A stretch of 64,000 nt of DNA from Nocardioides marmoriginsengisoli. Lineage in GTDB: Bacteria; Actinomycetota; Actinomycetes; Propionibacteriales; Nocardioidaceae. Of the stretch, positions 45,764 to 61,179 are shown piece by piece. The notes under the pieces are model-generated. The model ran no database searches and was not told where the DNA came from. It was given only the letters and a program-made list of their open reading frames with translations. The translations under genes were made by a program, and so were the position numbers. Each line of letters opens with the position of its first letter. Positions within the stretch are counted from its first letter, which is position 1. The stretch is from the NCBI RefSeq assembly GCF_003725695.1, contig NZ_RJSE01000007.1, positions 598,552 through 662,551 on the forward strand, read 5' to 3'.

Positions 45764-46903
45764 TCAGCTCTCGTTCGACCCCTGGCCCATCCGCAGGCTG
45801 AAGAACTCGGCGGCTGAGCTGCTTCCGACGACGATCCAGGTGACGGCAGCGACTGCCACCGCGACGAGCGGGGGCAGGAATCCGAGCGCGGCGAACGGCA
45901 GGGGTAGCAGGAAGAGCGCCCAGGCCAGCCGCAAGGTCCGTTGCTGGGCGCGGTGGGCACGGGCGGCCAGCGTCACGGCCCGTACGACGACGTCGATGTC
46001 GGGTGCGTCGATGCCCACGGAGTCGGCCGAGCCGGGAACCGGGGAGTAGTCGGCGCTGTCGACGGCGAGCAGCGAGACCGAACCGCCCGGCCGGCTGTGC
46101 ACCAGGCCGACGCTCTCGCCGCCGACCGTGAGTTCGCGGGCGAGCTGCAACGGGTCGGTCTCGGCGTGCCAGGCGGGACTGGCCGACAGGGTGGCGACCC
46201 GCTCCAGCTCCGCCTCGGTCCGGAGCGCGGCCAGCACCGGGGTCAGGCCGGTACGACGCAGCAGGTCGAGCTGATGACTGGCATCGGTGCGGACCTCGTC
46301 GGCGACCGTGATCCGGCCCAGCGGCCGGTGGTCGACGTCGACGGCGACGGTGGTGCCGATGGGGGACGGGGCGTCTTCGTTGCTGAACCCGAGCCACTCG
46401 GGCTGCCCGACCCGCACCGGGTGCCGGTCGACCGAACCACGGATGCCGCGGCCGGGCTCCTGGGCGAAGTTGCTGACCTTGCCGCGACCGGCCAGCTTGG
46501 CGACGGCGCGTCCGACCGGGTCGTCGTACGAGTGGGCGAGGGCGCCGGCGAACCAGCGCAGGTTCCGCTCGTGGTCGGGGTCGATCGGGTGCACCTCGGT
46601 CACCACCAGGTTTCCGGTGGTGAGGCTGTGGAACGGGTCGAGCACGAGGGTGCTGACGTGCTGCCAGCGTTCGAGTGCCTCGGTGCCGATCGACGTCACG
46701 CCGAGGGTGCGACCGGCGCGTCGGATCAGCCACGGGGAGAGCGTGCTGGCAACGACCAGTCCGATCGGCATGGCGAGGACCAGCACCGCTGCGGTGGAGC
46801 TGCCGTCAGCGGGAGCGAGCCAGGTCGCTGCCGCTGTCACGAGACCGATGGCGAGCGCGATGCTGAGCCCGATCTTGGGCGCCGCCGTACTGCGCCCCTT
46901 CAC
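45764..46903 (-). CDS. degenerate, truncated P1B-type ATPase-like membrane protein
   Basis: 379 residues aligning in order with the second half of heavy-metal P-type ATPases. A two-helix unit at 12-60 corresponds to TM5-6, where CPC reads AMP (44-46). ALERWQHVSTLVLDPFHSLTTG (75-97, two pieces of one segment) matches the phosphorylation loop with DKTGTLT changed to DPFHSLT. DDPVGRAVAKLA (127-138) replaces the HP motif, and GRGIRGSVDRHPVRVG keeps the N-domain shape. ITVADEVRTDA is normal, but the TGD hinge and GDGxND motif are lost (VLAAL, VHSRPGG). Two closing helices follow (330-360). Transport by it alone is impossible. GTG 46903 overlaps the PucR stop. Confidence 0.8.
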   Translation of the reverse strand: MKGRSTAAPKIGLSIALAIGLVTAAATWLAPADGSSTAAVLVLAMPIGLVVASTLSPWLIRRAGRTLGVTSIGTEALERWQHVSTLVLDPFHSLTTGNLVVTEVHPIDPDHERNLRWFAGALAHSYDDPVGRAVAKLAGRGKVSNFAQEPGRGIRGSVDRHPVRVGQPEWLGFSNEDAPSPIGTTVAVDVDHRPLGRITVADEVRTDASHQLDLLRRTGLTPVLAALRTEAELERVATLSASPAWHAETDPLQLARELTVGGESVGLVHSRPGGSVSLLAVDSADYSPVPGSADSVGIDAPDIDVVVRAVTLAARAHRAQQRTLRLAWALFLLPLPFAALGFLPPLVAVAVAAVTWIVVGSSSAAEFFSLRMGQGSNES

Positions 46904-48234
46904 TGGCCCGCTTCCTTCATGTCCCGGAAGAGGTCGAAGTCCCGCTGGTCGCCGCCCTTCCAGAGCAGCAGGCTGGACTTGAGCACGAGGGTGATCTGGA
47001 TGACGAACTCCGGGTCGTGAAGGGCTTCGCCGAACAGCTCGTTGATCCGTCGCCAGCGGTAGCGAACGGTCTGCGGGTGCACGTCGAGCCGGGCGGCGAT
47101 GGCGGGTGCGCTGTCGCGGGTCTCCAGCCAGGTGAGCAGGGTCTCGGAGAGGATCTCGCGGGAGTTGGGGGACTCGGCGAGCAGTGGTTCGAGCAGCTCC
47201 TGGCAGAGGCGGCGACGCATCAACGGTTCCGCGTGCAGCCAGAGCTGGATGGTGTGGTCGACGCAGCGCACCACCTGGGTCGGCGGGATGACGCCGAGCT
47301 GCACGAGGTCGAGTGCCCTGAGCGACCAGAGCAACGCCGAGCCCGATTCCTCCGGCGTCACCGGCCAGCTGACGACAACGCGGCGGTCGGTGGCTGACCT
47401 GGTCAGGTCGGAGACGATCGTTCCGACGAGATCAGCCGGGCAGAGCAGGTGCAGCCGATCGGCCTGCAGCTTGGCGAGAACCTCGGCCGTCTCGGGGAGC
47501 GGTGGTGGCTTGCCGTGGTAGCTGACCGCGATGGCCACGACCTGGTCGGGCACGGGCCAGCCCGCCTGAAGCGCAGCCTCGTTCATGACCTCGGTATCCA
47601 GGCCGAGGGGCCGCAGCGGAGAGATTCGGCCCACGGTGCCGCCCCAGAGGAGGTCCCAGAGTCTGACGCGTGCTCGGTTCTCGTCGTAGTACGGGTCGCG
47701 GCCCCACATGCTGTGCCCGGACATCAGCTGGGCGTGCAGGTGATCGCGATACTCCAGCAGCGCGTCGATCAGGTCACGCAGGCCCTCGACGGTTTGGTTG
47801 CGGTCTACTGCGAAATCGGTCAGGTGCCGCCAGATGACCCGCATCGCCACCTGCATCGCCAGCTCGAGGTTCTCGGTGTCGTTGCCGTCCTGCGCCTCGC
47901 CCCAACCCATCCGGTGGAAGAGCTCGTCGAGCTTGCGCGGCACCGGTGCCCGTCGCGCGGCGATCTCGACGAAGGCGTCGAGGGCCGCGTCGGCGGCGCG
48001 GCTGATCAACTGGTGACGGCGGCCCCCGTCCGGTCCGCGGTAGGCGGGCACCTCGGCCCGGACCTGGTCGACGATCGGCTGGGAGAGCTGGAGGAGCACG
48101 TCGCGGTAGGACTGCAGGCCGGCTGTCGGTCGCGGGGCCAGGATCGGGGCGTCCGTCATCGCCTCGGCACCGTCATCCGCGGGTGGATCAATCTCATCCT
48201 CGGCCTCCCGGTTCCTTGGCCTGTCGTCGCTCAT
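46900..48234 (-). CDS. PucR-family transcriptional regulator
   Basis: 444 residues. The C-terminal PucR helix-turn-helix is clear (SAPAIAARLDVHPQTVRYRW, then RRINELFGEALHDPEF). The central region (LHAEPLMRRRLCQELLEPLL and upstream) matches the GGDEF-like/CdaR module of this family. The N-terminal third is helical and carries no recognised sensor. Its stop overlaps the start of the degenerate ATPase gene (GTGA), so the pair is translated together; no other target is evident. The ribosome site before ATG 48234 is weak. Confidence 0.88.
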   Translation of the reverse strand: MSDDRPRNREAEDEIDPPADDGAEAMTDAPILAPRPTAGLQSYRDVLLQLSQPIVDQVRAEVPAYRGPDGGRRHQLISRAADAALDAFVEIAARRAPVPRKLDELFHRMGWGEAQDGNDTENLELAMQVAMRVIWRHLTDFAVDRNQTVEGLRDLIDALLEYRDHLHAQLMSGHSMWGRDPYYDENRARVRLWDLLWGGTVGRISPLRPLGLDTEVMNEAALQAGWPVPDQVVAIAVSYHGKPPPLPETAEVLAKLQADRLHLLCPADLVGTIVSDLTRSATDRRVVVSWPVTPEESGSALLWSLRALDLVQLGVIPPTQVVRCVDHTIQLWLHAEPLMRRRLCQELLEPLLAESPNSREILSETLLTWLETRDSAPAIAARLDVHPQTVRYRWRRINELFGEALHDPEFVIQITLVLKSSLLLWKGGDQRDFDLFRDMKEAGQ

Positions 48235-48314: not shown

Positions 48315-48459
48315 GTGCGGGCGGAATCTCAGGAACTCCGCGGTACGACGCCGGACCGACCTGGGGGAGAAAGTTCGGCGCCCCGCAGCATGCATTCAGC
48401 CGGTTGGCAAGGGCGCGGGCTAGCAATCGGCAACTTTCTCGGCGGAATGAGTCAAAACT

Positions 48460-48475
48460 TGCGATGCGCATCACA
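48460..48475. promoter_or_regulatory. weak CRP/GlxR-like site
   Basis: TGCGA-N6-TCACA, one mismatch from the TGTGA-N6-TCACA consensus, 226 bases upstream of the PucR-type gene start. Low weight on its own. Confidence 0.3.
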
Positions 48476-48502
48476 ACTATTTCGTGAACGTCGAAGGGGC
48501 GG

Positions 48503-50572
48503 TCAGATCTTGAACTTGGGCCTGATGGTGACCGCCTTGACGTTGGTGTTGCCGGCGTACTGCACGGTCGCCGTGTACTTGCCGCGCTTGATCTTCTTGA
48601 CCACCACGGTGGCGACCCCGTTGGCGTTCACCTTGGCGACGACCCTCTTCTTGGTCTTGCCCTTCAGGGTGATCGTGACTTTGCCGGCCGGGGAGATTCC
48701 TGCCGTGGTCCTGACCTTGACGGTCAGCGTGACCTTCTTGGCCAGCTTCCTGGTCTTGCCTGTTGCCCTGGCCTTCAACGCCGCCGACGCGGCAGCCTTG
48801 CTGATGCCGACGTTGAGCACCGGGGAGGTCGACCCTGCGGTGGTCGCGTCACCGCTGTACGTCGCCGTCACCGCATGAGTGCCGGCCGCCAGACCGACGG
48901 GCAGCACCCAGGTGGCCTTGCCGTCGCTGACGGGGCGGGCGGGCGAGGTGGTCGTGCCTACCTTGAAGGTCACCGAACCGGTGCTGGTCCCTCCGAGTGC
49001 GGTCACGGTTGCCGTCACGGTCCGACCGGTCCGGACGGGCGAGGTACCGGGGCTGACGGTCAGGGAGGTGGTCGACACCACCTTCGCCACAGTCACGACG
49101 AGGTTCACCGAGGTGGACCCGGCGACCGACGCGTCACCGCTGTAGGCGGCCGTCACCGTGTGGTCACCCGCTGCCAGGTCGGCAGGGAGGGCCAGCGTGG
49201 CCGTGCCCGCCGTCAGTGCCGTGGCATCGCCAGCGGTGCCGTCCACGGTGAAGGTCACCGTGCCGGTGGGGGACGCGTCCGGGGCGGTCACGGTGGCCGT
49301 CAGGGTCCTGACGGTCCCGACCGGTGACGTCCCGGGGGCGACCGAGACGCTGGTGGTCGAGGTGATCTTGGCGACGGCGGCAGTCGCGTCGGAGCTGGAC
49401 ACCAGGTCCTCGTCCCCGCGGGTGGCGCTGGTGCGGTAGCTGATGGCCTGGCCGAGCTGGGCCACGCCCAGGGTCAGCGTCGTACCGGTCTCTCCGGCGA
49501 TCGGGTCCTCTCCGGCGTACCACTGGCCGGTCGCCGGGGCGTCCGGAGCCAGGGAGAAGGTGGCCGGCGTGGCGGTCAGGATCTGTCCGACGGTCGGCGT
49601 ACCCGCGATGGTCGGCTTGGTCAGGTCGCGGAAGATCGTCGTGATGGCGGCAGCGTGCGCCATGCCCACCACGACGGTGTTGACCGGCTCCCCGGTCAGC
49701 TCGTCCGGGATGGTCGTGACCGCGGTCTCGGCACCCCAGGCGTGCACGACACCGTCAGCGGTGACGGCGGCACTGTTGTTCCCGATGGCGAGGCTGATCA
49801 CCTTGGTGGCGGGGGTGAGGCCGTCGAAGGTCGGTTCGCCGTCCGGAACCGTTCCCCAGGTCTTGATGGTGCCGTCCTCGAAGATGACGCCGCTTGCTCC
49901 CGGACCGTTGCTGATCTGGACGGCCTTCTTGCCCTCGAAGTCGGGGACTTCGAGCGCACCAGTGCTGCCCCACGAAGCAACGGTGCCGTCGGAGCGGAGG
50001 GCCAGGACGGAGGTCGTGGATGCCTCGACGTCGGTCACGTCTGCCAGGCCGTTCGGGACCGGGAAGATCGGGTTCGCAATTCCCCAGGTGGCGACCGTCC
50101 CGTCCGGACGCACGGCGTACCCGGTGTCGCTGATGACGGCGATCGCCTTGGCCCGCAGTTCGCTGGGAGGTGCGGAGAACTCCTCGGTCTCGCCACCCCA
50201 GGCAGTGATGTGGCCGTCGGTGTGCAGCGCGGCGCCACTGCCGAGCGACAAAGAGAGCGCCTCGGCGTCGGTGATTCCAGCAGGAACACTCATCCACTCG
50301 GGCGCGAAGGCGGCGCCCCAGACCCGAACATGACCGTCCAGGGTGACTACGCCGGTGGCACGGAACCCGACGGCGACGGACTTCACGGGACCAGTGAGAT
50401 CCTCGGGGATCGGAATGGCTGCTGCCGCCCAGAAGTGTCCCGTGTTGCCCCAGGTGCTGAGGGTGCCGACCTTCTCCGCCGGCAGAGTGGTTGCGGAGTG
50501 CGCGGGTACGGCGGCCCCTCCGACGATCAGGCTGCTGACGGCTGTCGCTGCCAGGAAATGTCTTAGACGCAT
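48503..50572 (-). CDS. secreted RCC1-like beta-propeller / Ig-like protein
   Basis: 689 residues from ATG 50572 (AGGAGAAG upstream). A signal peptide (FLAATAVSSLIVGGAAVPAH) precedes an RCC1-like propeller (about 30-315) with repeats of the form SDGTVASWGSTGALEVPDFE. A bridging Ig-like module (PTVGQILTATPATFSLAPDA), two Big_3_5-type Ig domains (TSPVGTVRTLTATVTAPDAS and TSPVRTGRTVTATVTALGGT) and a Lys-rich terminal beta domain ending RPKFKI follow. There is no anchor. Probably an extracellular binding protein; it resembles its divergent neighbour at 50929. Confidence 0.87.
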   Translation of the reverse strand: MRLRHFLAATAVSSLIVGGAAVPAHSATTLPAEKVGTLSTWGNTGHFWAAAAIPIPEDLTGPVKSVAVGFRATGVVTLDGHVRVWGAAFAPEWMSVPAGITDAEALSLSLGSGAALHTDGHITAWGGETEEFSAPPSELRAKAIAVISDTGYAVRPDGTVATWGIANPIFPVPNGLADVTDVEASTTSVLALRSDGTVASWGSTGALEVPDFEGKKAVQISNGPGASGVIFEDGTIKTWGTVPDGEPTFDGLTPATKVISLAIGNNSAAVTADGVVHAWGAETAVTTIPDELTGEPVNTVVVGMAHAAAITTIFRDLTKPTIAGTPTVGQILTATPATFSLAPDAPATGQWYAGEDPIAGETGTTLTLGVAQLGQAISYRTSATRGDEDLVSSSDATAAVAKITSTTSVSVAPGTSPVGTVRTLTATVTAPDASPTGTVTFTVDGTAGDATALTAGTATLALPADLAAGDHTVTAAYSGDASVAGSTSVNLVVTVAKVVSTTSLTVSPGTSPVRTGRTVTATVTALGGTSTGSVTFKVGTTTSPARPVSDGKATWVLPVGLAAGTHAVTATYSGDATTAGSTSPVLNVGISKAAASAALKARATGKTRKLAKKVTLTVKVRTTAGISPAGKVTITLKGKTKKRVVAKVNANGVATVVVKKIKRGKYTATVQYAGNTNVKAVTIRPKFKI

Positions 50573-50686
50573 GTTCTTCTCCTGTTCGGTGGAGGCAGAC
50601 ACCTCCCGTGGTGTCGCCGACCATCCCTGAGGTCGAGCACGCTGAGGGGGTTTGGGAACCAACCGGGTAAGGAGAACCCAGAAAGT

Positions 50687-50702
50687 TGTGACCCGCCTCA
50701 CA
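50687..50702. promoter_or_regulatory. consensus CRP/GlxR-type site
   Basis: TGTGA-CCCGCC-TCACA matches the CRP/GlxR consensus exactly, and the palindrome extends to AGTTGTGA/TCACAACT (50684-50705). It lies 115 bases from the minus-strand start and 227 from the plus-strand start, so it could control one or both secreted-protein genes. Confidence 0.65.
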
Positions 50703-50796
50703 ACTCACGATCGACGCGTGCCTGGCGGCCCGTGGGAGCCGGATTCTTCACTCACGATCGATGCCTGCCTGGCGGCCCGTGGGAGCCGGATTCGTC
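50703..50796. repeat. tandem 47-bp repeat
   Basis: Two adjacent 47-base units (50703-50749 and 50750-50796) differ at three positions. Each begins ACTCACGATCGA and contains GGCGGCCCGTGGGAGCCGGA. They abut the CRP-type site. Confidence 0.9.
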
Positions 50797-50928
50797 ATCT
50801 GGGTGACAAGTTCGGGGACCGGGAGCGATGCATTTTCCGCGAGCGCGTCGAACGGCGCACAGGCGGACCTACCTTGTGTCGCAGGTCACGTCGGACGACG
50901 TGCGGGTTTCGTTCCCGGAGGAGTGGTT

Positions 50929-52842
50929 ATGCGCAGACGGCTGAATTGGAGCGGTGTCGCACTGGCGGCAGCCTTGGTGCTGGGAGCACTGAGTCCCGTG
51001 GGTCTGACGCCCGCGTCGGCAGAGGACGAGCCCGTCGAGGTCACGCCGATCTCGCAACCGGGCATGGCGGTCTCGTTCGACCAGGCTGGCGAACTGCGGC
51101 TGTGGGGGGACAACTCGATCGGTCAGCTGACGATGCCGGCGGAGCTGGACGGGGTTGCGTTCAAGCAGGTGCTGCTCCCGATGGACAGCGTCGTGGCGCT
51201 GACCGCAACCGGACGGGTTGTCGGGTGGGGTGCGAATCCCGTCCAGCTGGAGAAGATCCCCGCGGTGGTTCAAGCGGCCAAGGTCGTGCAGATCGCCGCG
51301 GGTGACCAGCACGCGCTGGCAGTCACCGAGGACGGACGTGTCCTTGCCTGGGGCAAGACGCGGGCGTTCGATACTCCGCTGAACGTCCCCGAAGGGCTCA
51401 CCGACGTCAAGCAGGTCGCCACCTACGCGCTCGGAGCCGCTGCCTTGAAGAACGACGGATCGGTGGTGGCCTGGGGAGACGGAGGAACCTTCAACTACGG
51501 CGTCAAGAACGTGCCGGAGGGGCTGGTGGCCACCAGTATCGCGGCGTCCGGAGCCGGGTGCTACTTGGCGCTGACTCCGGAGGGCGTGATCGAGAGCTGG
51601 GGTGACGCCTGCAACGTCGGGGGCTGGACGTCCGGTTCGCCGCGCGTCACGACTGCGGTGCGGCCGATCCTCAAGTCCCTGGCGACCAACCCCTTCGCCG
51701 CGATCGGGATCCTGCCGAGCGGCAAGATGGCCTTCTCCACCACGATGGTCAACTACTCCCCGCCTCCCGCGGTTTTCGATACGGGGGAGCCCGTCCTGAT
51801 CGCAAGCGGAACCGGCAACTACGAGATGGCGTTCGTTGACGCCGATCGGAACATCCACTACTGGAACGGACAGAATCCTCCGGGACAGGTCCCGGCCCCG
51901 ATTCCGGGTGAGATCCCTGCGGACCTGAATGGTCGGGACATCACCCAGATGGTGATCGGCAACTACTCGGGCAACATCGACACCATCCCGACCCAGGTCC
52001 GCGGGGGTGTGGTGATCCGGAAGCTGTTGCGGGCTGAGCTGCCGAAGGTGACCGGTGTCCCGGCTGTCGGGAGCACGCTGACCGGGACCCCGGGAACGTT
52101 CTCGGCCTCGCCGGACGATGTTGCCGGTCAGTGGCTGGCCAACGGGGACCCGATCGAGGGTGCCGTGACGGCGACGCTGACGGTGACCTCCGCGATGGCG
52201 GGCAAGGCGATCAGCTACCGGTCGACCGCGTCGAAGACCGGCCAGACCACCATCTCCTCGACCTCGTCGTCGTTGACCGTCCCGAGTGCAGCGAGTGTCA
52301 AGGTCACGGCTGCGGTCGGCGCGTACGGAAAGGCATCGGCGGTCACCGTCGCTGTCGCGGGGGCGGCCGGGAACGTGGCGCTCACCATCGGTGGCCGGCC
52401 GGCGGGGACGAAGGCGCTGTCCGGCGGCAAGGCCGTCTTCAGCATCGCTGGGACCACGGCACCGGGCAGGCACGCTCTCCAGGCGACCTATGCCGGGAGC
52501 GAGTCGTTCAGTCCGGGTAGTGCGACCGGGACGTTGACGATTGGCAAGGGCAGGTCCGGGGCGGTCGTCCTCAAGGTCGTCAAGGCGAGTCCGAAGAAGA
52601 AGGGCACGGCCACCGTGACGGTCGCGACCGGAGCTGGACTGGTCAAGGCGGCCGGCACCGCCCAGGTCGTGCTGAAGCAGGGCAGGGTCACCAAGAAGGT
52701 GAACCTGAGGGTCGTCAACGGCAAGGCTGTCGGCAGGCTCCCCAAGCTGAAGAAGGGCACCTGGACCGCGACGGTGACCTACCTGGGCAGCACCTACTAC
52801 CTGCCCGCGAAGTCCCGAGCGATCCGGTTCAAGTCCAAGTAG
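50929..52842 (+). CDS. secreted RCC1-like beta-propeller / Ig-like protein
   Basis: 637 residues from ATG 50929 (GGAGGAG upstream). The signal peptide is VALAAALVLGALSPVGLTPA with cleavage near ASA-E. An RCC1-like propeller (about 35-360; repeats such as EDGRVLAWGKTRAFDTPLNV and NDGSVVAWGDGG) leads to a module PAVGSTLTGTPGTFSASPDD that closely matches one in the divergent gene. An Ig-like domain and a Lys-rich C-terminal domain complete it. There is no membrane anchor. The divergent pair looks like an old duplication, with both products exported. Confidence 0.88.
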   Translation: MRRRLNWSGVALAAALVLGALSPVGLTPASAEDEPVEVTPISQPGMAVSFDQAGELRLWGDNSIGQLTMPAELDGVAFKQVLLPMDSVVALTATGRVVGWGANPVQLEKIPAVVQAAKVVQIAAGDQHALAVTEDGRVLAWGKTRAFDTPLNVPEGLTDVKQVATYALGAAALKNDGSVVAWGDGGTFNYGVKNVPEGLVATSIAASGAGCYLALTPEGVIESWGDACNVGGWTSGSPRVTTAVRPILKSLATNPFAAIGILPSGKMAFSTTMVNYSPPPAVFDTGEPVLIASGTGNYEMAFVDADRNIHYWNGQNPPGQVPAPIPGEIPADLNGRDITQMVIGNYSGNIDTIPTQVRGGVVIRKLLRAELPKVTGVPAVGSTLTGTPGTFSASPDDVAGQWLANGDPIEGAVTATLTVTSAMAGKAISYRSTASKTGQTTISSTSSSLTVPSAASVKVTAAVGAYGKASAVTVAVAGAAGNVALTIGGRPAGTKALSGGKAVFSIAGTTAPGRHALQATYAGSESFSPGSATGTLTIGKGRSGAVVLKVVKASPKKKGTATVTVATGAGLVKAAGTAQVVLKQGRVTKKVNLRVVNGKAVGRLPKLKKGTWTATVTYLGSTYYLPAKSRAIRFKSK

Positions 52843-52871: not shown

Positions 52872-52901
52872 CCGCAGTTGTCATCCGGGTAACAACTGCG
52901 G
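52872..52901 (+). terminator. terminator after the RCC1-like gene
   Basis: CCGCAGTTGT pairs with ACAACTGCGG over ten bases, 30 bases after the stop codon. No long T run. Confidence 0.7.
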
Positions 52902-52967
52902 TCCCGGCGCCGGACGTTCTCGCCGTTCTGCTTGCTGTGACGGCCGCCACCGATGAAAGGTCCACGC

Positions 52968-53927
52968 ATGAAGTTCAAGCAACGCGCTCGACGCTGGGCG
53001 CTGGTCGGCGCGTTCGCTGTGACCCTGGGGATGGTCGCGCCGTCCTCCCAGGCGTACGAGTACTACCCCGGACTCCCTGATTCGACGTTCGGCAACTGGA
53101 CGTCGACGTCCCAGTCCGGGATGGCGTACACCAAGCGCGCGAAGCAGTGGTTCAAGGCTCCAGCCGGCATCGTGACGACGGAGTACGTCGCGGATCAGAA
53201 GAGTCTCGACCAGACCATCGCGCACTGGGAGATCCGGGCCGAGAGCTACTTCGTCTCACCCGACGGTGCGCCGGAGCAGTTCGGCTACATGGAGCCCATG
53301 ACGGTGCGTTCCGTGGGTTTCGGCATCATGCCGGTGGAGGCCACGGTCCAGATCAGCCAGCGTCGACGCAACGGGTTCCCCGTCCCGGTGCCGGTCCTCA
53401 TCAAGACCGATCAGTACAAGCAACCGGACGGGACCTGGGACGAGTACAACCGGGAGTTCGTCGTCGAGGACAGCGTGAACGTCCGGGTCCTGTCCGTCCG
53501 GGTCGACGGGCAGGACATGCAGCTGAACGGCAACTGCCGGACCAAGGAGCCAGCACCGTTCCGGGTGGTCGGGCCCGAGACGGTTCGCCGCGACACCGAC
53601 GCCAACCCTGCGGCCGAGTGGTACGCCAAGAAGGATCCGGAAACCTACTACCACCCGTTGTACGGCGGCTCCCTGAAGGGGGCGATCACGATCCCGCCTT
53701 TCACGGGTTGCACGACCAGTGCCGGTGACGACCTGTCGCGGCTCATCACGCTCGCGGCGTCGGGGCCGGACAACCCGATGCAGGCCCGGTCCGGCTGGCC
53801 GTTCTCCTGCATCCAGCTGAACGAGACCGGCTCGATCATCGTCCCCGCTCCTCCGGGCAAGAACACGCCGAAGAAGGCGAACTGCGCCGGACCGCAACCC
53901 TTCGAGTACCCGGAACGCGACGAGTAG
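52968..53927 (+). CDS. secreted protein of unknown function next to the mce operon
   Basis: 319 residues from ATG 52968; AAAGG seven bases upstream makes it better than ATG 52953. A signal peptide (RWALVGAFAVTLGMVAPSSQ, cleavage near SQA-Y) leads to a beta-rich mature protein with four Cys (in LNGNCRTKEP, PFTGCTTSA, WPFSCIQL and KKANCAGP) likely forming two disulfides. I recognise no family. The mce operon starts 91 bases later in the same direction, so it may be a periplasmic accessory factor for that importer. Confidence 0.8.
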   Translation: MKFKQRARRWALVGAFAVTLGMVAPSSQAYEYYPGLPDSTFGNWTSTSQSGMAYTKRAKQWFKAPAGIVTTEYVADQKSLDQTIAHWEIRAESYFVSPDGAPEQFGYMEPMTVRSVGFGIMPVEATVQISQRRRNGFPVPVPVLIKTDQYKQPDGTWDEYNREFVVEDSVNVRVLSVRVDGQDMQLNGNCRTKEPAPFRVVGPETVRRDTDANPAAEWYAKKDPETYYHPLYGGSLKGAITIPPFTGCTTSAGDDLSRLITLAASGPDNPMQARSGWPFSCIQLNETGSIIVPAPPGKNTPKKANCAGPQPFEYPERDE

Positions 53928-54018: not shown

Positions 54019-55776
54019 GTGGGCGGATCGGTCGAAGTCTTCGGACTCAGCAAGACGTACGGGCGCCAGAACATCTGGCACGACGTCACGCTGACCCTGC
54101 CCCCCGGCGAGATCACCGCGATGATGGGCCCCTCGGGAACCGGTAAGTCGGTGTTCCTCAAGTCGATCATCGGGCTGACCGACCCGGAGGAGGGCCAGAT
54201 CCTGATCGACGGCATCGACATGGTCTCGGCGCGGGAGTCGCACCGGCTCGAGCTGCGCAAGAAGTTCGGCGTGCTCTTCCAGGACGGTGCCCTGTTCGGG
54301 TCCCTGCCCGTCTACGACAACGTGGCGTTCCCGTTGCGCGAGCACACCAACCTCAAGGAGCACCAGGTGCGCAACCTGGTGATGGAGAAGCTCGAGATGG
54401 TCGGCCTGGTCGGGCAGGAGCACAAGCTGCCCGGCGAGATCTCCGGCGGCATGAAGAAGCGAGCCGGTCTGGCGCGCTCGCTGGTCACCGACCCCGAGAT
54501 CATCCTGATCGACGAGCCCGACTCGGGCCTCGACCCGGTCCGGACCTCCAACCTGGCCCAGCTGCTCATCGAGGTGAACGCGGCCACCGACGCCACCATG
54601 CTGGTGGTCACGCACAACATCGAGCTGGCGCGCACCCTGCCCGACAACCTCGGCATGCTCTACCGGCGCGAGCTGGTGATGTTCGGTCCGCGCGAGGACT
54701 TCCTGATGACCGACCACCCGGTCGTCTCCCAGTTCATGAGCGGTGACCCCGACGGCCCGATCGGGATGAGCGAGGAGGCTGATCACAAGCGAAACGACCC
54801 GATCGACTACGACGGCACCTACCCGGGGTCCACCACGATCCACACCGGCGCGCGGGCCATCGAGGTGCTGCCCCGGCAGCTGGCTCCCCGTTCCGGCGCC
54901 GTCCGTGCCAGCGCCGAGCGGCACCGCCAGCGGGTCACCTCCGGGGCAGCGAGCCTCTACGTCGCCGACGACGAGGAGAGCGACCGAGACCGGTCCATCG
55001 CGAAGCCGATCCTCCCGGCTCGGGCGCTCGACAGCGTCGGACACCTGTTCGCGCTCGGGCTCGACACCCTGCGCGCCGCCTTCCGGCGACCGTTCTCGGC
55101 GAAGGAGACGCTGCAGCAGTTCTGGTTCGTCGTCAGTGTCTCCTGGGTGCCGGCGGTCCTGATCTCCATCCCGCTCGGAGCGGTCATCGCCCTCCAGCTG
55201 GGCACCCTGACCAAGCAGATCGGTGCGCAGTCGATGACGGGTGCGGCGAGCGTGCTCGCGGTCGTCCAGCAGGCAGCGCCGATGGTGACCACGCTCGTGA
55301 TCGCCGGAGCTGGCGGCGCGGCGATCTGCGCCGAGATCGGATCGCGCAAGATCCGGGACGAGATCGACGCGATGAAGGTGATGGGTCTCGATCCGGTGCA
55401 GCGGATCGTCGTACCGCGGGTCGTCGCCTGCGTGGTGGCGGCGGTCCTGCTCAACGGCCTGGTCTCGGTGGTCGGCGTGCTCGGCGGGTACTTCTTCAAC
55501 GTCGTGCTCCAGGGCGGGACTCCCGGTGCCTACCTGTCCAGCTTCACCGCGCTCGCTCAGATCTCCGACCTGTGGATCGGGGAGATCAAGGCGATCGTCT
55601 TCGGGTTCCTGGCCGGCGTCGTCGCCAGCTACCGGGGCCTGAACACGGCTCCCGGCCCCAAGGGGGTCGGCGACTCGGTGAACCAGTCGGTGGTCATCAC
55701 GTTCCTGCTGCTCTTCTTCGTCAACTTCGTCCTCACGGCGCTGTACCTGACGATCGTTCCCATGAAGGGGGCCTGA
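54019..55776 (+). CDS. fused MceG-type ABC ATPase and YrbE/MlaE permease
   Basis: 585 residues in one uninterrupted frame from GTG 54019 (CAGGAGG upstream). Residues 1-250 are a MceG/Mkl-type ATPase: Walker A GPSGTGKSVFLKS, signature EISGGMKKRAGLAR, Walker B IILIDEPDSGLDP and switch VVTHNIE. A charged linker (about 255-350) leads to a full MlaE/YrbE permease with the coupling segment SRKIRDEIDAMKVMGLDPVQ and five or six TMs. In the usual mce systems, as I recall them, these are separate proteins. It energises uptake of lipids or steroids through the Mce1-6 conduit encoded downstream. Confidence 0.93.
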   Translation: MGGSVEVFGLSKTYGRQNIWHDVTLTLPPGEITAMMGPSGTGKSVFLKSIIGLTDPEEGQILIDGIDMVSARESHRLELRKKFGVLFQDGALFGSLPVYDNVAFPLREHTNLKEHQVRNLVMEKLEMVGLVGQEHKLPGEISGGMKKRAGLARSLVTDPEIILIDEPDSGLDPVRTSNLAQLLIEVNAATDATMLVVTHNIELARTLPDNLGMLYRRELVMFGPREDFLMTDHPVVSQFMSGDPDGPIGMSEEADHKRNDPIDYDGTYPGSTTIHTGARAIEVLPRQLAPRSGAVRASAERHRQRVTSGAASLYVADDEESDRDRSIAKPILPARALDSVGHLFALGLDTLRAAFRRPFSAKETLQQFWFVVSVSWVPAVLISIPLGAVIALQLGTLTKQIGAQSMTGAASVLAVVQQAAPMVTTLVIAGAGGAAICAEIGSRKIRDEIDAMKVMGLDPVQRIVVPRVVACVVAAVLLNGLVSVVGVLGGYFFNVVLQGGTPGAYLSSFTALAQISDLWIGEIKAIVFGFLAGVVASYRGLNTAPGPKGVGDSVNQSVVITFLLLFFVNFVLTALYLTIVPMKGA

Positions 55777-55777
55777 C

Positions 55778-56695
55778 ATGGCAGACAACGCCGTGTTCGC
55801 CGAACCGTCCTTTCCGCCCGAGCTGCCAGCGCCGCGCAGGCGGGCCCAGCGTCCGCCCGCCAGGACGCAGGGTCGCGCCGCGGCGCTCCTGTCGCGCCCG
55901 GTCGACCGGGTGGTCAACCTCGGCGCCGACCTCCGCTTCTACGGGTCGGTGCTCGGCCAGATCCCGGCGACGCTGAAGAGCTATCCGAAGGAGGTGCTCC
56001 GGCTGCTGTCGGAGGTCAGCTTCGGGTCAGGTGCGCTCGCCGTCATCGGCGGGACGATCGGCGTCATGCTCGGCCTGACCCTCGCGGTCGGGTTCGTCGT
56101 CGGCATCCAGGGCTACGCCGCGCTCGACCAGATCGGCGCGGCCGCGCTCAACGGGTTCATCTCGGCGTACTTCAACACGCGTGAGGTCGCCCCCATGGTC
56201 GCCGCGCTGGCGCTGTCGGCCACCGTCGGCTCCGGCTTCACCGCGCAGCTCGGCGCGATGCGGATCAACGAGGAGGTCGACGCGCTCCGTGCGATGGCGG
56301 TGTCGCCGGTGCCGTACCTGATCACGACCCGGGTGATCGCCGGCTTCGTCGCGATCATCCCGCTGTACGTCGTCGGTCTGCTCACGTCGTACGCCGGGTC
56401 CCGCCTGATCACGGTCCTCGTCTACGGCCAGTCGCCGGGGACGTACGACCACTACTTCAACCTGTTCCTGCCACCGGTGGACATCCTGCTGTCGTTCTTC
56501 AAGGTGCTGTTCTTCTCGGTGATCATCATCCTGGTGCACTGCCGGATGGGCTACCAGGCGACCGGCGGTCCGGCCGGGGTCGGCGTCGCTGTCGGCCGCG
56601 CCGTAAGGCGGAGCCTGGTGACGGTGGCGGTGCTCGACCTCGTCCTCTCGATGGCCCTGTGGGGTGCCTCGACCACGGTGAGGATCGCCGGATGA
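55778..56695 (+). CDS. YrbEB/MlaE-type permease of the mce system
   Basis: 305 residues, a stand-alone MlaE permease with five or six TMs. The coupling helix MRINEEVDALRAMAVSPVPY matches that of the fused protein, and YFNTREVAPMVAALALSATV precedes it. It probably forms a heterodimer with the permease half of the upstream fusion. It starts one base after the previous stop, and its own stop overlaps mceA (ATGA). Confidence 0.93.
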   Translation: MADNAVFAEPSFPPELPAPRRRAQRPPARTQGRAAALLSRPVDRVVNLGADLRFYGSVLGQIPATLKSYPKEVLRLLSEVSFGSGALAVIGGTIGVMLGLTLAVGFVVGIQGYAALDQIGAAALNGFISAYFNTREVAPMVAALALSATVGSGFTAQLGAMRINEEVDALRAMAVSPVPYLITTRVIAGFVAIIPLYVVGLLTSYAGSRLITVLVYGQSPGTYDHYFNLFLPPVDILLSFFKVLFFSVIIILVHCRMGYQATGGPAGVGVAVGRAVRRSLVTVAVLDLVLSMALWGASTTVRIAG

Positions 56696-58050
56696 GCGCC
56701 GCACGCGTGCGTGACCTGCTCCTCGGGATCCTGGCACTAGCCCTGATCGTCGGCGGCCTCGTCGTCGCCTACCTCTCGTTCAACCGGACCCTGGTGCCGC
56801 ACCGCGACGTGACGCTGCGGACCGACGTCGTCGGCAACGCGCTCCAGGTCGGATCCGACGTGAAGTACTTCGGCGTGCCGATCGGGGCGGTCTCCAAGAT
56901 CACCGCCACCGACGAGGGCGCCGACCTGACCCTGGCACTCGATCCCGACGTCCTGGACGACGTGCCGTCCAACGTCGTCGCCCGGCTGCTGCCCAAGACG
57001 ATGTTCGGCGAGCGCTACGTGGCGCTCGTCGTCCCCGAGATCAAGAGCAGTGCGGCGCTGGCCCAGGGTGACGTGGTCTTCCAGGACGCATCGGCCGAGG
57101 CCACCGAGCTGCAGCAGGTGCTCGACGAGCTCTTGCCGGTGCTGCGTGCCATCCAGCCTGAGAAGCTCTCGGCGATGCTCGGCGAGTTCTCCGACATGCT
57201 GCGGGGCAACGGGACCGAGATGGGCGACTCGATGGTCGCCTGGTCCAGCTACATGAAGAAGATGAATCCGAAGGTTCCTCAGATGATGGAGGACTTCAAG
57301 AAGCTGGCCGTCGTTGCCGACTCCTACAAGATCGCGGCACCGGACCTGATCGACGCCCTCGCGACGATGACGACGTCATCCCAGACGCTCGTCGAGGAGC
57401 GCGAGAACCTGCGCGACGTGTACGCGAGCGTCATCGGTTCCTCCGACACCGTGCGGGGGTGGATGACGAAGAACGAGAACACCATCGTGGTGCTCTCCGA
57501 CCGGAGCAAGGCGGCCCTGCGCGCGACCGCTCCGTACGCGTCCCAGTTCCCTTGCCTGTTCCGGGCCGTGGTGAAGATGAAGCCGCGGATGGAGCAGGCG
57601 CTCGGCAAGGGCACCGACGAGCCGGGCATCCACGCCGTGCTCAAGGTGACTCCGGCCCGGTCCAAGTACCTGGCCGGCAAGGACAACCTGACCTACACCA
57701 AGGGCACCCCGCCGCCCCGCTGCCCCTACGTCACCGGCTCCGTCGGAACCAGCCCCGCCAAGAGAACGGCAGCTGCGGCAGTCTGGCCCGATGCCGGCTC
57801 CGGGTCGATCGCGCCGGAGACGGACGGCGGTACCAACGACCCGCAGCAGATCGCGCCGCCGCCGGCAGCCCACGCGCAGGCCCACCTGGCAGCGTTGACG
57901 GGCCTGGGTGACGCGAACTCCCCGGCCGAGAACCAGCTGATCGCCGAGCTGATCGCCCCGACCCAAGGCATGGCTCCCTCCGAGTACCCGGACTGGAGCA
58001 GCCTGCTGCTCGGGCCGACCCTGCGCAACACGAAGGTGGTGCTCCGATGA
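56692..58050 (+). CDS. mceA: MceA-family protein
   Basis: 452 residues: one N-terminal TM (LLLGILALALIVGGLVVAYL), an MCE/MlaD domain (about 38-115; LRTDVVGNALQVGSDVKYFG, VPIGAVSKI) and a helical region that assembles into the needle-like conduit. The C-terminal 100 residues are Pro/Ala-rich and unstructured. It is first of six collinear mce genes, which fixes it as A by position. It binds and passes lipids across the cell wall to the YrbE pair. Confidence 0.92.
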   Translation: MSAARVRDLLLGILALALIVGGLVVAYLSFNRTLVPHRDVTLRTDVVGNALQVGSDVKYFGVPIGAVSKITATDEGADLTLALDPDVLDDVPSNVVARLLPKTMFGERYVALVVPEIKSSAALAQGDVVFQDASAEATELQQVLDELLPVLRAIQPEKLSAMLGEFSDMLRGNGTEMGDSMVAWSSYMKKMNPKVPQMMEDFKKLAVVADSYKIAAPDLIDALATMTTSSQTLVEERENLRDVYASVIGSSDTVRGWMTKNENTIVVLSDRSKAALRATAPYASQFPCLFRAVVKMKPRMEQALGKGTDEPGIHAVLKVTPARSKYLAGKDNLTYTKGTPPPRCPYVTGSVGTSPAKRTAAAAVWPDAGSGSIAPETDGGTNDPQQIAPPPAAHAQAHLAALTGLGDANSPAENQLIAELIAPTQGMAPSEYPDWSSLLLGPTLRNTKVVLR

Positions 58051-59108
58051 GCAACGACGCCAACCATGGTCCGCTCTGGGTCATTGCGGTCAAGAGCATC
58101 GTCTTCACGCTGATCACGGGGGTCGCCACCGGACTGCTCGCGCTGACGATCCGGAACTCATCCTCCGGGGACCTGCACACGTACACCGCGATCTTCACCG
58201 ATGTCACCAGCCTGAACCGGGGCGACGACGTCCGGGCCGCCGGGGTCAAGGTCGGGACGGTCGAGGACATCCAGATCACCGACAAGCGGCTCGCGCGGGT
58301 GAAGTTCACGATCCGTGACGGGGTCCCCGCCGCGTCGGACTCGGTCCTCCAGATCAAGTTCCGCAACCTGGTCGGCCAGCGCTACATCGCGCTGCAGCAA
58401 CCGGATCCCTCCGGGAGCGACGCGACGCCCGTGAGCGCGTCGGCACGGGTCGAGCCGGGCCACGTGTTCGGCGTCGAGCAGACGCGCCCCGCGTTGGACC
58501 TCACCGTCCTGTTCAACGGCTTCCGCCCCCTGATGCGGCTCCTCGACCCCGAGGACGTCAACAACCTGAGTGAGCAGATCATCGCCGTGTTCCAGGGCGA
58601 GGACGCCACCGTCGAGGGCCTGATGCAGAGCACCGCCAGCCTGACCACCGCGCTCGCTGAGAAGGACCAGGTCATCGGTGAGCTGATCACCGGCCTGAGC
58701 AGCGTGCTGACCGACATCAACTCGCGCTCCGGTCAGCTCGACACGACCCTGGTGACGATGCAGCAGCTGGTCACCGGCCTCTCCGAGGACCGGCAGGCGA
58801 TCGGCGCCTCCCTGGAGGGCATGGGGGCGCTGACCACGAGGGTCTCGACCCTGGTCGGGGAGACTCGGCCCGCGCTGCGCCGCTCGATCAGGCACCTCGG
58901 GGTGCTCGCCCAGACGCTCGACACGAACAGCGACGACGTCGAGAACTTCCTGAGGACGACGCCGATCAAGCTCGACCGGATCGCCCGGACCGCCAGCTAC
59001 GGGTCCTGGCTCAACTTCTACCTGTGCTCCATGGACGGACGGATCCCGATGGCTGAGGGCTACATGGGCGACGTCGGCGTGCTGCCGGTGGCCGGGAGGT
59101 GCCGCTGA
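58047..59108 (+). CDS. mceB: MceB-family protein
   Basis: 353 residues. The TM (IVFTLITGVATGLLALTI) and MCE domain (TDVTSLNRGDDVRAAGVKVG, TVEDIQI) are followed by a long helical part (about 120-310) with ALAEKDQVIGELITGLSSVL-type heptads and the conserved end WLNFYLCSMDG. It overlaps mceA by ATGA and mceC by TGATG. Confidence 0.92.
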   Translation: MSNDANHGPLWVIAVKSIVFTLITGVATGLLALTIRNSSSGDLHTYTAIFTDVTSLNRGDDVRAAGVKVGTVEDIQITDKRLARVKFTIRDGVPAASDSVLQIKFRNLVGQRYIALQQPDPSGSDATPVSASARVEPGHVFGVEQTRPALDLTVLFNGFRPLMRLLDPEDVNNLSEQIIAVFQGEDATVEGLMQSTASLTTALAEKDQVIGELITGLSSVLTDINSRSGQLDTTLVTMQQLVTGLSEDRQAIGASLEGMGALTTRVSTLVGETRPALRRSIRHLGVLAQTLDTNSDDVENFLRTTPIKLDRIARTASYGSWLNFYLCSMDGRIPMAEGYMGDVGVLPVAGRCR

Positions 59109-60121
59109 TGTCCCGCTTCCCCCTGGCGTTCGCCGAACGCAACCGCGTCTGGATCGCCGTTGTCGGGTTGGTCGCTCTCGGTGCGGCGTTCTACGCGGCC
59201 GTCAACATCACCTCGCTCCCGATCATCGGTGACGGGCAGCAACGTCAAGCGATCTTCCGCGAGGCCGCCGGTCTGCGTCCTGGGGACGAGGTCCGCGTCG
59301 CCGGCGTGCGCGTCGGCGAAGTGACGAAGGTCCAGCTGGAAGGCGACCAGGTCCGGGTCAGCTTCCAGGCGAAGGATGTCGACCTTCCCGACGAGAGCAG
59401 TGCCGCGATCAAGGTGAAGACGATGCTCGGGCAGAAGTACCTGGCGCTCGACCCCCTCGGATCCGGGAAGCTGTCGGGACCGATCCCGCTCGAGCGCACG
59501 CTCACGCCGTACGACGTCAACGCGGCCGTGTCCGACTTCGCCAGCACGCTCGGGGAGATCGACACCGAGCAGCTCGAGGGCAGCTTCCGCGCCCTGTCCG
59601 CTGCGTTCAAGGACACCCCCGAGTCGGTCCAGAAGCTGGTCTCCGGTCTCTCGGACCTGTCGCGGAGCATCTCGACCCGAGATGCCGACCTCGCCTCGCT
59701 CTTCGAGGCCTCCAAGGGCGTCAGCGGGACACTGGCCGAGCGCAACAACGAGCTGGCCGGTCTGATCACCGACGGGTCCGACCTGCTCGGGGAACTGCAG
59801 AAGCGACGCGATGCCGTGCACAAGCTCTGGGTCGGAACCCGGGACCTCGGGGAGCACCTGCACGGGCTGGTCAAGGACAACGAGAAGGCGCTCTCCCCGG
59901 CCCTGGAGAAGATCGACCGGGTCTCGGCGATCCTCAACCGCAACCAGGCGAACCTGAACGCCGCGCTCGCGAAGCTGGGCCCGTACTACAACGTGCTGGC
60001 CTCGGCGACCGGCAACGGCAAGTGGATCGACTCCTACCTGTGCGGCTTGTTCGACGGGAACAACGAGCCGGTCCTGGAGAACGACGTGGTTCGCAACTGC
60101 CGACCCGGAGGTGCGCAGTGA
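59108..60121 (+). CDS. mceC: MceC-family protein
   Basis: 337 residues from ATG 59108. The TM (VWIAVVGLVALGAAFYAAVN), MCE domain (FREAAGLRPGDEVRVAGVRV) and helical barrel region follow the family plan, ending with KWIDSYLCGLFDGNNEPVLE. It is translationally coupled on both sides (TGATG before, GTGA after). Confidence 0.92.
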   Translation: MSRFPLAFAERNRVWIAVVGLVALGAAFYAAVNITSLPIIGDGQQRQAIFREAAGLRPGDEVRVAGVRVGEVTKVQLEGDQVRVSFQAKDVDLPDESSAAIKVKTMLGQKYLALDPLGSGKLSGPIPLERTLTPYDVNAAVSDFASTLGEIDTEQLEGSFRALSAAFKDTPESVQKLVSGLSDLSRSISTRDADLASLFEASKGVSGTLAERNNELAGLITDGSDLLGELQKRRDAVHKLWVGTRDLGEHLHGLVKDNEKALSPALEKIDRVSAILNRNQANLNAALAKLGPYYNVLASATGNGKWIDSYLCGLFDGNNEPVLENDVVRNCRPGGAQ

Positions 60122-61179
60122 GTAGGCCAGTAGCACTCGGAAAGCGCACGATCGTCCTCGTGGCGATCGGGCTGCTCGTCGTGGCCGGGATCGGCGCCAA
60201 GGCGCTGTTCGGCACCGACCCCGTCAAGATCACCGCGATGTTCGACTCGACGGTCGGCCTGTACGTCGGCAACGACGTGCAGGTGCTCGGCGTACCGGTC
60301 GGCGAGGTCACCGGCGTGTTCGTCGAGGGCGAGAGCGTGCGGGTCACCATGGAGATCGACCCCGAGCAGCCGGTCGCCGCTGACACGAAGGCGGTGATCA
60401 TCGCGCCGACGATGGTCAGCGACCGGTTCGTCCAGCTGACCACCCCGTGGAAGAAGGGCTCGGGTGACGCCCGGCTCGGCAGCGGGACCGTGCTGAGCAC
60501 CGAGCGGACCGCCGTTCCCGTCGAGATCGACGACCTCTACCGCGGTCTCGAGGACTTCTCCGAGGCGCTGGGTCCGCGCGGCGCCAACAAGAACGGTGCG
60601 TTGAGCGAGCTGATCACCACCGGTGCCGAGAACCTCCAGGGCCAGGGCGCCAAGCTGAACCAGATGATCGCCGAGTTCGGGAAGGCCAGTGCGACGCTCT
60701 CCAGCATCGACGAGGACTTCTTCGGCACCCTGAAGAACCTCAACGACCTCAGCGACATGCTGGTCGCGAACGACGACGCGGTGGCGGCGGTGAATCACCA
60801 ATTCGCCGAGGTGGCCGGCTTCCTCGCCGACGATCGCGACGAGATGGGGGAGGCGGCCGAGAACCTCGCGGCCGCGATGACGATCCTCGACGACTTCATT
60901 ACCGAGAACCAGGACCACCTGGACCAGAGTGTTCGGAACCTGCTGCCGACGGTGCAGACGCTCAAGAAGCAGCGGAAGTCCTTGGACACGATGGTCCGGC
61001 TCGGGCCGCTCCTGCTGGCGAACCTGAAGGACAGCTACGACCCGGTCAACAACCTGATCGCGGGTCGAGGCAACGTCAACGAGGTGTCGTTGTGGAGCAA
61101 CGACGGGCTGACCGCCCGCACGTCGCGGAACGCACCGCCGACCTTGCTGGCCGGCACGAACGATCGGAGCACCCGATGA
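60118..61179 (+). CDS. mceD: MceD-family protein
   Basis: 353 residues from GTG 60118. The TM (TIVLVAIGLLVVAGIGAKAL), MCE domain (ITAMFDSTVGLYVGNDVQVL, GVPVGEVTGVF) and a long helical segment (about 130-310) rich in coiled-coil heptads are present. It ends GRGNVNEVSLWSNDG and a short tail. It overlaps mceC (GTGA) and mceE (ATGA). Confidence 0.92.
   Translation: MSRPVALGKRTIVLVAIGLLVVAGIGAKALFGTDPVKITAMFDSTVGLYVGNDVQVLGVPVGEVTGVFVEGESVRVTMEIDPEQPVAADTKAVIIAPTMVSDRFVQLTTPWKKGSGDARLGSGTVLSTERTAVPVEIDDLYRGLEDFSEALGPRGANKNGALSELITTGAENLQGQGAKLNQMIAEFGKASATLSSIDEDFFGTLKNLNDLSDMLVANDDAVAAVNHQFAEVAGFLADDRDEMGEAAENLAAAMTILDDFITENQDHLDQSVRNLLPTVQTLKKQRKSLDTMVRLGPLLLANLKDSYDPVNNLIAGRGNVNEVSLWSNDGLTARTSRNAPPTLLAGTNDRSTR

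What the first reader, a model, noticed from the sequence alone, without database searches (positions are those of the whole stretch)
45764..48234. PucR regulator coupled to a dead, half-length P1B-type ATPase
The 379-residue product keeps the order of the TM5-6, P-domain, N-domain and TM7-8 segments of heavy-metal ATPases. Every catalytic signature is changed: CPC to AMP, DKTGTLT to DPFHSLT, HP to DP, and the TGD and GDGxND motifs are lost. It also lacks the N-terminal half (TM1-4 and the actuator domain). The open, undamaged frame and its GTGA coupling to a PucR-type regulator argue for a selected new role, such as a membrane-bound nucleotide or metal sensor controlling the regulator, rather than decay.
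Basis: partly seen in the sequence, partly recalled or inferred. Interest (0 to 1): 0.75.

Follow-up and report, generated by a model that had tools for sequence, protein, structure and literature searches.

The report
Dead copper pump partners gene regulator
A copper-pump gene that has lost all its pumping parts has been kept by evolution in many soil bacteria as the constant neighbour of a gene regulator, and the pair appears to control a lipid-uptake system and secreted proteins.

Summary
In detail: the 379-aa product is the C-terminal half of a P1B copper ATPase with every catalytic motif lost, GTGA-coupled to a MabR-type PucR gene. It is one member of a family that my searches found only in Nocardioidaceae. 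All 34 named loci have an adjacent same-strand PucR, three with swapped order. None of 55 members keeps DKTGT, CPC, TGD or GDGxND. Conservation is inverted: the N-domain is the most conserved part (pairwise identity 0.59, against 0.45 in live pumps), the membrane part the least (0.28 against 0.73). dN/dS is 0.06-0.38 in 12 pairs. AlphaFold gives pLDDT 91 and a P1B fold. The dead family is one branch; partnered PucRs group together (support 90, with four unpartnered).

A palindrome, TTGTNAN6TNACAA, precedes PucR, RCC1/Ig, secreted-protein and Mce lipid-import genes; in this 4.46-Mb genome 5 of 6 sites lie within 6 kb of its two pairs. Other PucRs without a partner are a confounder for who binds it.

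Most likely the dead pump is a membrane-anchored partner whose repurposed N-domain docks or modulates PucR. Partnership is well supported by genomics, the regulon fairly; docking, ligand and sign of regulation are inferred.

The parts
45764..46903 (-). Catalytically dead half P1B-type ATPase, 379 aa, GTG start
46619..46639 (-). Former phosphorylation motif DKTGTLT, here DPFHSLT (residues 89-95); D kept in 44 of 55 members
46304..46582 (-). N-domain (about residues 108-200), the most conserved part of the family
46532..46567 (-). Family signature RNLRWFAGALAH (residues 113-124), N-domain helix
46394..46438 (-). Family signature GSVDRHPVRVGQPEW (residues 156-170), N-domain strands
46900..46903 (-). 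GTGA start/stop overlap coupling the two genes
46900..48234 (-). MabR-type PucR regulator: globin-like N-domain (weak fold match), GGDEF-like domain, HTH_30
48459..48476 (.). Operator-like palindrome (1 mismatch to TTGTNAN6TNACAA), 224 bp upstream of the PucR start
50686..50703 (.). Operator TTGTGACCCGCCTCACAA, upstream of the (-) RCC1/Ig gene (probable ATG at 50572)
50792..50809 (.). Operator-like TCGTCATCTGGGTGACAA (1 mismatch), upstream of the (+) RCC1/Ig gene (probable ATG at 50929)
52878..52895 (.). Operator TTGTCATCCGGGTAACAA, 57 bp upstream of secreted protein S3 and the Mce operon
48503..50701 (-). RCC1-repeat/Ig-like predicted secreted protein, predicted target
50761..52842 (+). RCC1-repeat/Ig-like predicted secreted protein, predicted target
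52953..53927 (+). Predicted secreted protein of family S3 (no Pfam or NCBIfam hit), predicted target
54019..56695 (+). Mce importer: ABC ATPase fused to MlaE permease, then MlaE permease; predicted targets
56659..63727 (+). Six MlaD/Mce4_CUP1 (Mce) proteins, predicted targets

Best explanation
A P1B copper ATPase of a Nocardioidaceae ancestor lost its actuator domain, metal site and catalytic motifs and became the dedicated membrane-anchored partner of a MabR-type PucR transcription factor. The two genes are usually translated as a coupled pair. The regulator binds palindromes TTGTNAN6TNACAA before its own gene, RCC1/Ig surface proteins, secreted S proteins and Mce lipid-import operons. The dead pump's N-domain, which faces the cytosol in live pumps (recalled), has become the working part. 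It most likely docks on PucR, holding it at the membrane or changing its DNA binding when an envelope or lipid signal is present. Shown by sequence and structure computation: the family, loss of catalytic motifs, selection focused on the N-domain, pairing, co-grouping in trees, and the palindrome with the genes beside it. Inferred: that this PucR binds the palindrome, that the N-domain contacts PucR, the ligand, and whether the pair represses or activates.
For: Adjacency: 52 distinct members with PucR upstream, 44 with a 4-nt overlap (start chosen as nearest to the PucR stop); 34 of 34 named loci adjacent, three with swapped order. 34 of 41 strong PucR hits in 159 genomes are partnered (profile built from partnered PucRs). 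Dead family on one branch, SH-aLRT 100; the 54 partnered PucRs put in the tree fall in one clade, support 90; mirror-tree r 0.773, 0 of 2000 permutations. Dead: 0 of 55 keep DKTGT, CPC, TGD or GDGxND. Selection: omega 0.06-0.38 in 12 pairs; pooled over ten pairs N-domain 0.108, rest 0.316, with similar dS; inverted conservation. Membrane helix before and after the soluble part in 55 of 56. Operator: TTGTn10ACAA in 26 of 72 upstream regions, none in four resamplings; own genome 5 of 6 relaxed sites within 6 kb of the two pairs, reversed-pattern control 0; 18 of 33 partnered PucR upstream regions, 0.04 in shuffles; exact site in 23 of 33 genomes with strong PucR against 3 of 126; 17 of 27 sites in freshly fetched regions have a Mce, S2, S3 or RCC1 gene next to them.
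Against: No complex model or experiment. A second, lower-scoring PucR class occurs in 15 of 159 genomes, all with the exact palindrome, while genomes with only the partnered kind have it in 7 of 17; in L235 and L236 (G103, G064) the sites lie between an Mce operon and another divergent PucR. So part or all of the strict signal may belong to other PucRs; variant sites only partly remove the doubt. Six of 41 strong PucRs lack the partner, so PucR can probably act alone; G014 has PucR and palindrome but no dead pump beside it. Of 24 genus genomes, 8 have strict sites with up to 1 mismatch, six of them without a strong PucR, so in the own genome the position of the sites, not their number, is telling. 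Ten of the 27 sites have no such gene beside them. 15 of 33 partnered PucR genes have no site within 500 bp. Mirror-tree correlation and the genome table are confounded by shared ancestry.
Confidence: 0.55

Rival explanations
1. Ligand sensor: the N-domain keeps or has re-shaped its nucleotide pocket and binds a nucleotide or other cytosolic metabolite, passing that signal to PucR.
For: The second Gly of GxG is kept in 53 of 55 and the Gly three residues on in 55 of 55; the conserved residues lie on the helix and strands that form the pocket in CopA (pocket position recalled).
Against: The Glu and His positions that hold adenine (recalled) are kept in only 25 and 15 of 55 and both are lost in the window; new near-invariant residues (NLRWFAGAL, DRHPVRVG) are not those of ATP binding.
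Confidence: 0.25
2. The dead pump is a structural or assembly part of the Mce/secreted-protein machinery and is merely co-expressed with PucR.
For: Palindromes and neighbourhoods link the pair to Mce and secreted proteins.
Against: The constant neighbour is PucR, not Mce or S genes, which were not found near several pairs (crude gene calling); swapped gene order keeps PucR as neighbour.
Confidence: 0.12
3. Decaying pseudogene of a copper ATPase that happens to sit behind PucR.
For: All catalytic motifs lost; membrane helices eroded.
Against: Conserved family in many species, omega well under 1, N-domain more conserved than in live pumps, conserved adjacency.
Confidence: 0.03
4. A surviving HAD-type phosphatase or kinase activity of the P-domain.
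For: Asp of DKTGT kept in 44 of 55.
Against: GDGxND (Mg-binding, recalled) is intact in none of 55, the Lys after the Asp is kept in 16, and P2 identity falls to 0.33.
Confidence: 0.03

Closest known systems
P1B-1 copper ATPase CopA (LpCopA 3rfu; the genome's own CopA, G000:C16)
   Same: Fold, order of the last four membrane helices and P-N-P parts; clear homology
   Different: No actuator TGE, no CPC, no DKTGT/TGD/GDGxND; N-domain under strongest instead of weakest constraint
MabR (Rv2242), PucR-family regulator of the mycobacterial fas-II operon (PMC11617747)
   Same: GGDEF-like and HTH domains and probably the globin-like domain; C-terminal structure 9f80 is the best PDB hit of the partner
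   Different: In the sections I read, MabR is described without a membrane partner and its effector is unknown; the genes beside the palindrome here are Mce and secreted proteins, not fas-II
Transporter-derived signal receptors (UhpC and similar, recalled, not tested)
   Same: A transporter relative that serves signalling to gene expression
   Different: Those known to me do not derive from P-type ATPases; here a P-type ATPase half is paired with a one-component regulator

Membership tests
P1B-type ATPase (active pump) | Sequence and fold homology to P1B ATPases | tested here: met
   (below the NCBIfam member cut-off)
P1B-type ATPase (active pump) | Phosphorylation motif DKTGT | tested here: not met
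   DPFHS in the window; 0 of 55 members exact
P1B-type ATPase (active pump) | CPC metal site | tested here: not met
   MPI in the window; CPC in 0 of 55
P1B-type ATPase (active pump) | Actuator domain with TGE | tested here: not met
   column empty in all 51 aligned members
P1B-type ATPase (active pump) | TGD and GDGxND of the P-domain | tested here: not met
   0 of 55
MabR-type PucR regulator (partner gene) | HTH_30 domain | tested here: met
   E 4.9e-15
MabR-type PucR regulator (partner gene) | GGDEF-like domain and C-terminal fold of Rv2242 | tested here: met
   9f80 E 3.3e-5 by sequence (HTH part), 1.2e-5 by Foldseek over 260 columns, but TM-score only 0.48
MabR-type PucR regulator (partner gene) | Non-heme globin-like N-domain | tested here: inconclusive
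   Globin sensors incl. RsbR 2bnl and 3pmd appear with high probability but E above 0.3
MabR-type PucR regulator (partner gene) | DNA binding | not testable with these tools
   operator inferred only
Pseudogene | Relaxed selection (omega near 1), broken frames | tested here: not met
   omega 0.06-0.38 in 12 pairs, open frames

The most novel reading that the evidence does not exclude
The first P-type-ATPase-derived signal receptor in bacteria: a pump turned into a membrane pseudoenzyme that directly controls a one-component transcription factor through its former nucleotide-binding domain, supplying the missing input for a MabR-type regulator and tying a lipid importer (Mce) and surface proteins to an envelope or lipid signal.
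Probability: 0.45. Interest if true: 0.87.

Novelty: new variant of a known kind. Interest (0 to 1): 0.75.

Why it matters
It would show that the P-type ATPase scaffold can be emptied of transport and reused for gene control, with selection moved from the catalytic core to the N-domain. It offers a concrete candidate input for MabR-type PucR regulators, whose effectors remain to be identified (PMC11617747, Discussion), and a testable operator and regulon for Mce lipid-import operons in soil actinobacteria.

Tried and rejected
Single-sequence scan of genome contigs found nothing; an alignment scan found 34 loci. The tally of matches in relatives is dominated by ordinary copper ATPases and says nothing about the family. 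Aeromicrobium frames of 730-840 aa that score next to the family (L115, L116, L118) have no PucR upstream; L115 and L116, read, keep CPC, DKTGT and GDGxND and are live pumps; L118 passed the same motif filter. G532 (other family, 736-aa frame) and L117 (137 bits) were not examined further. Pseudogene, metal-sensor and HAD-phosphatase readings were rejected for the reasons given. The strict palindrome TTGTCAN6TGACAA first looked specific to the pair; one search showed a second PucR class as confounder (its members read in G085, G090, G115 and G130, as L152, L206, L201 and L144, have no dead pump of their own; the other 11 were not checked). I therefore rest more on the own genome, which has no hit of that class at E 1e-55 (a distant PucR at C4, 7e-47), and on the relaxed pattern. 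The relaxed pattern was drawn up after seeing sites in L031 and the window, so 5 of 6 is not an independent test. The regions were picked by me from the capped list, mostly away from the pairs; a site counted if the gene on either side fitted. The 72 regions include paralogues and related species. Rows dropped: four duplicate loci (L064, L079, L119, L120), and L112 (start uncertain); near-duplicate loci L122, L125, L129, L131, L133; L098, L112 and close relatives; near-identical rows. The 16 unpartnered PucRs are those at hand, not a sample; one search left out L139, L149, L150, L152 and L153. AF2 coordinates could not be read, so no surface mapping was done.

Full report
What is there. The frame at 45764-46903 (-) encodes 379 aa and starts with a GTG that overlaps the TGA of the 444-aa frame 46900-48234 (-). 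The first matches P1B ATPases (TIGR01525 E 3.4e-27; LpCopA 3rfu E 6.3e-13; family profile to 3rfu E 4e-48) and no Pfam family. AF2 on 35 aligned sequences gives pLDDT 91, pTM 0.86, with helices 11-28 and 35-66, a P/N/P soluble part and helices 303-332 and 345-378; Foldseek's best hit is 3rfu, E 3.5e-17. The second has a PucR HTH_30 domain, and its best solved relative is the C-terminal part of MabR/Rv2242, 9f80.

A family, not an orphan. The own genome holds a second pair (G000:C14) and G036 a third. A profile search of 294 family genomes and follow-up of high-scoring or short frames gave 52 distinct members with PucR upstream, 44 with a 4-nt overlap, three with a 1-nt overlap, four with gaps of 6-13 nt and one (L112) with an uncertain start. 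The start was picked as the one nearest the PucR stop, which favours short distances. The rows without PucR upstream are L113 (PucR downstream), the full-length pumps L115, L116, L118 and the weak hit L117. A scan of 84,980 species genomes for two signature peptides gave 143 stretches, 34 confirmed loci: Nocardioides, Pimelobacter, Aeromicrobium, Mumia, and MAGs or isolates with only higher names. All 34 have a same-strand neighbouring PucR (in L139 and L153 only part of it is in the adjoining frame); in N. zeae, N. sp. ChNu-153 and N. alkalitolerans it lies downstream. Searches of 196 order and 345 class genomes at E 1e-75, with only the best 5-10 candidates per genome scored, returned hits in the window's own family, plus G532, which was not examined. 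That this family is Nocardioidaceae follows from contigs shared with named records. In 159 genomes 41 strong PucR hits were found: 34 partnered, one at a contig end, six unpartnered.

Dead but selected. In 55 non-redundant members (of 56), none keeps DKTGT, CPC, TGD or GDGxND; the Asp of DKTGT is kept in 44, the His of HP in 15, the second Gly of GxG in 53. None of the 51 members aligned has the actuator TGE. The full-length comparison pumps were picked by having CPC, DKTGT and GDGxND, so their motif counts are by construction. Mean pairwise identity, dead (51) against live (38): residues 11-66 0.28/0.73, P1 0.42/0.66, N 0.59/0.45, P2 0.33/0.66, residues 301-379 0.29/0.73. Twelve close pairs have omega 0.06-0.38; pooled over ten pairs, N 0.108 and rest 0.316 with dS 0.33 and 0.37, so the N-domain is not kept by an overlapping constraint on DNA. 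The near-invariant N-domain residues (RNLRWFAGALxH, GSVDRHPVRVGxPxW) are largely absent from CopA. Hydropathy finds at least one membrane helix on each side of the soluble part in 55 of 56, L112 being the exception; N-terminal ones run from one to six.

Origin. Dead and live proteins separate on one branch (SH-aLRT 100, quick tree); the window protein groups with members from G112, G178 and G310. The 54 partnered PucRs in the tree fall in one clade (support 90) with four unpartnered ones, from G178 (two), G112 and the own genome, which also hold pairs. Distances of partners correlate (r 0.773, 43 pairs, 0 of 2000 permutations), which shared species history would also produce. The PucR C-terminal HTH part is nearly fixed (mean distance 0.21 against 0.66 and 0.62 elsewhere), suggesting one DNA target.

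Operator and regulon. Neighbourhoods repeat: secreted families S1, S2, S3 (no Pfam or NCBIfam hit for the seven examples tested), RCC1/Ig proteins and Mce operons. Dyad counting in 72 upstream regions of S1-S3 and RCC1 genes found TTGTn10ACAA in 26, the top-ranked dyad, absent from four resamplings; most sites read TTGTCAN6TGACAA. In the own genome the strict pattern with up to 1 mismatch occurs twice, both in this window; but 8 of 24 genus genomes have such sites, so only their position is telling. The relaxed TTGTNAN6TNACAA occurs six times, five within 6 kb of the two pairs, reversed-pattern control zero; in the window alone, strict sites with up to 2 mismatches number three against 0.55 expected, reached by 3 of 100 shuffles. 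Of 33 partnered PucR genes 18 have a site within 500 bp upstream (shuffles 0.04), including the window (48459-48476). The exact strict site is in 23 of 33 genomes with strong PucR and 3 of 126 others (Fisher 6e-17 if genomes were independent); the reversed pattern is in 3 of 159. Of 27 sites in 20 further regions, 17 have a Mce, S2, S3 or RCC1 gene beside them. In this window the sites precede both RCC1 genes and the S3-led row of ABC-MlaE, MlaE and six Mce genes.

Caveat. At E 1e-55, 15 genomes also carry a second PucR class, and all 15 have exact sites; of 17 genomes with only the partnered kind, 7 do, and in G103 and G064 the sites adjoin yet another PucR. The kinds may share or divide the operator. 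G014 and G066 have PucR and exact sites; G014's PucR is unpartnered, G066's surroundings were not read.

Mechanism. Membrane anchoring with weak sequence constraint, a highly conserved N-domain and strict pairing point to a protein-docking or ligand role of the N-domain towards PucR. PucR's N-terminal part resembles globin-type sensors weakly, as MabR's does (PMC11617747, section 2.2); that one of these, 3pmd, binds a fatty acid is recalled and would fit a lipid-import regulon.

Literature. Of PMC11617747 I read the outline with abstract, introduction, sections 2.2, 2.6, 2.10 and discussion; of PMC10654040 and PMC8467076 only found passages. Searches of the held library showed no paper on such a pair in their listings, which were capped except; subscription journals and preprint servers are largely outside it.

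Noticed in passing
window 54019-55776 (+): One 585-aa protein carries an ABC ATPase (21-168) and an MlaE permease domain (365-575), a fused Mce ATPase-permease; relatives of 78-81% identity lie beside palindromes in other genomes of the family.
   Followed up: partly
window 48503-52842: Two divergent RCC1-repeat/Ig-like predicted secreted proteins; relatives occur in 10 of the 37 loci compared, L032 and L122 being the same place.
   Followed up: partly
L031:3822-6675: Tandem PucR genes before the own genome's second dead ATPase; the first lacks a partner of its own.
   Followed up: partly
L094 (G064:C10; L148 Mumia quercus): Two complete PucR/dead-ATPase pairs in tandem.
   Followed up: no
L149, L150, L152: Swapped gene order: dead ATPase first, PucR after it.
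   Followed up: partly
L153:4269-8578: PucR copies before and after the dead ATPase both appear broken by frame shifts in this assembly.
   Followed up: no
window 44518-45684 (+): PrsW-type intramembrane protease convergent with the dead ATPase gene.
   Followed up: no
G000:C2:1236411-1236428: Sixth genomic operator-like site, away from both pairs.
   Followed up: no
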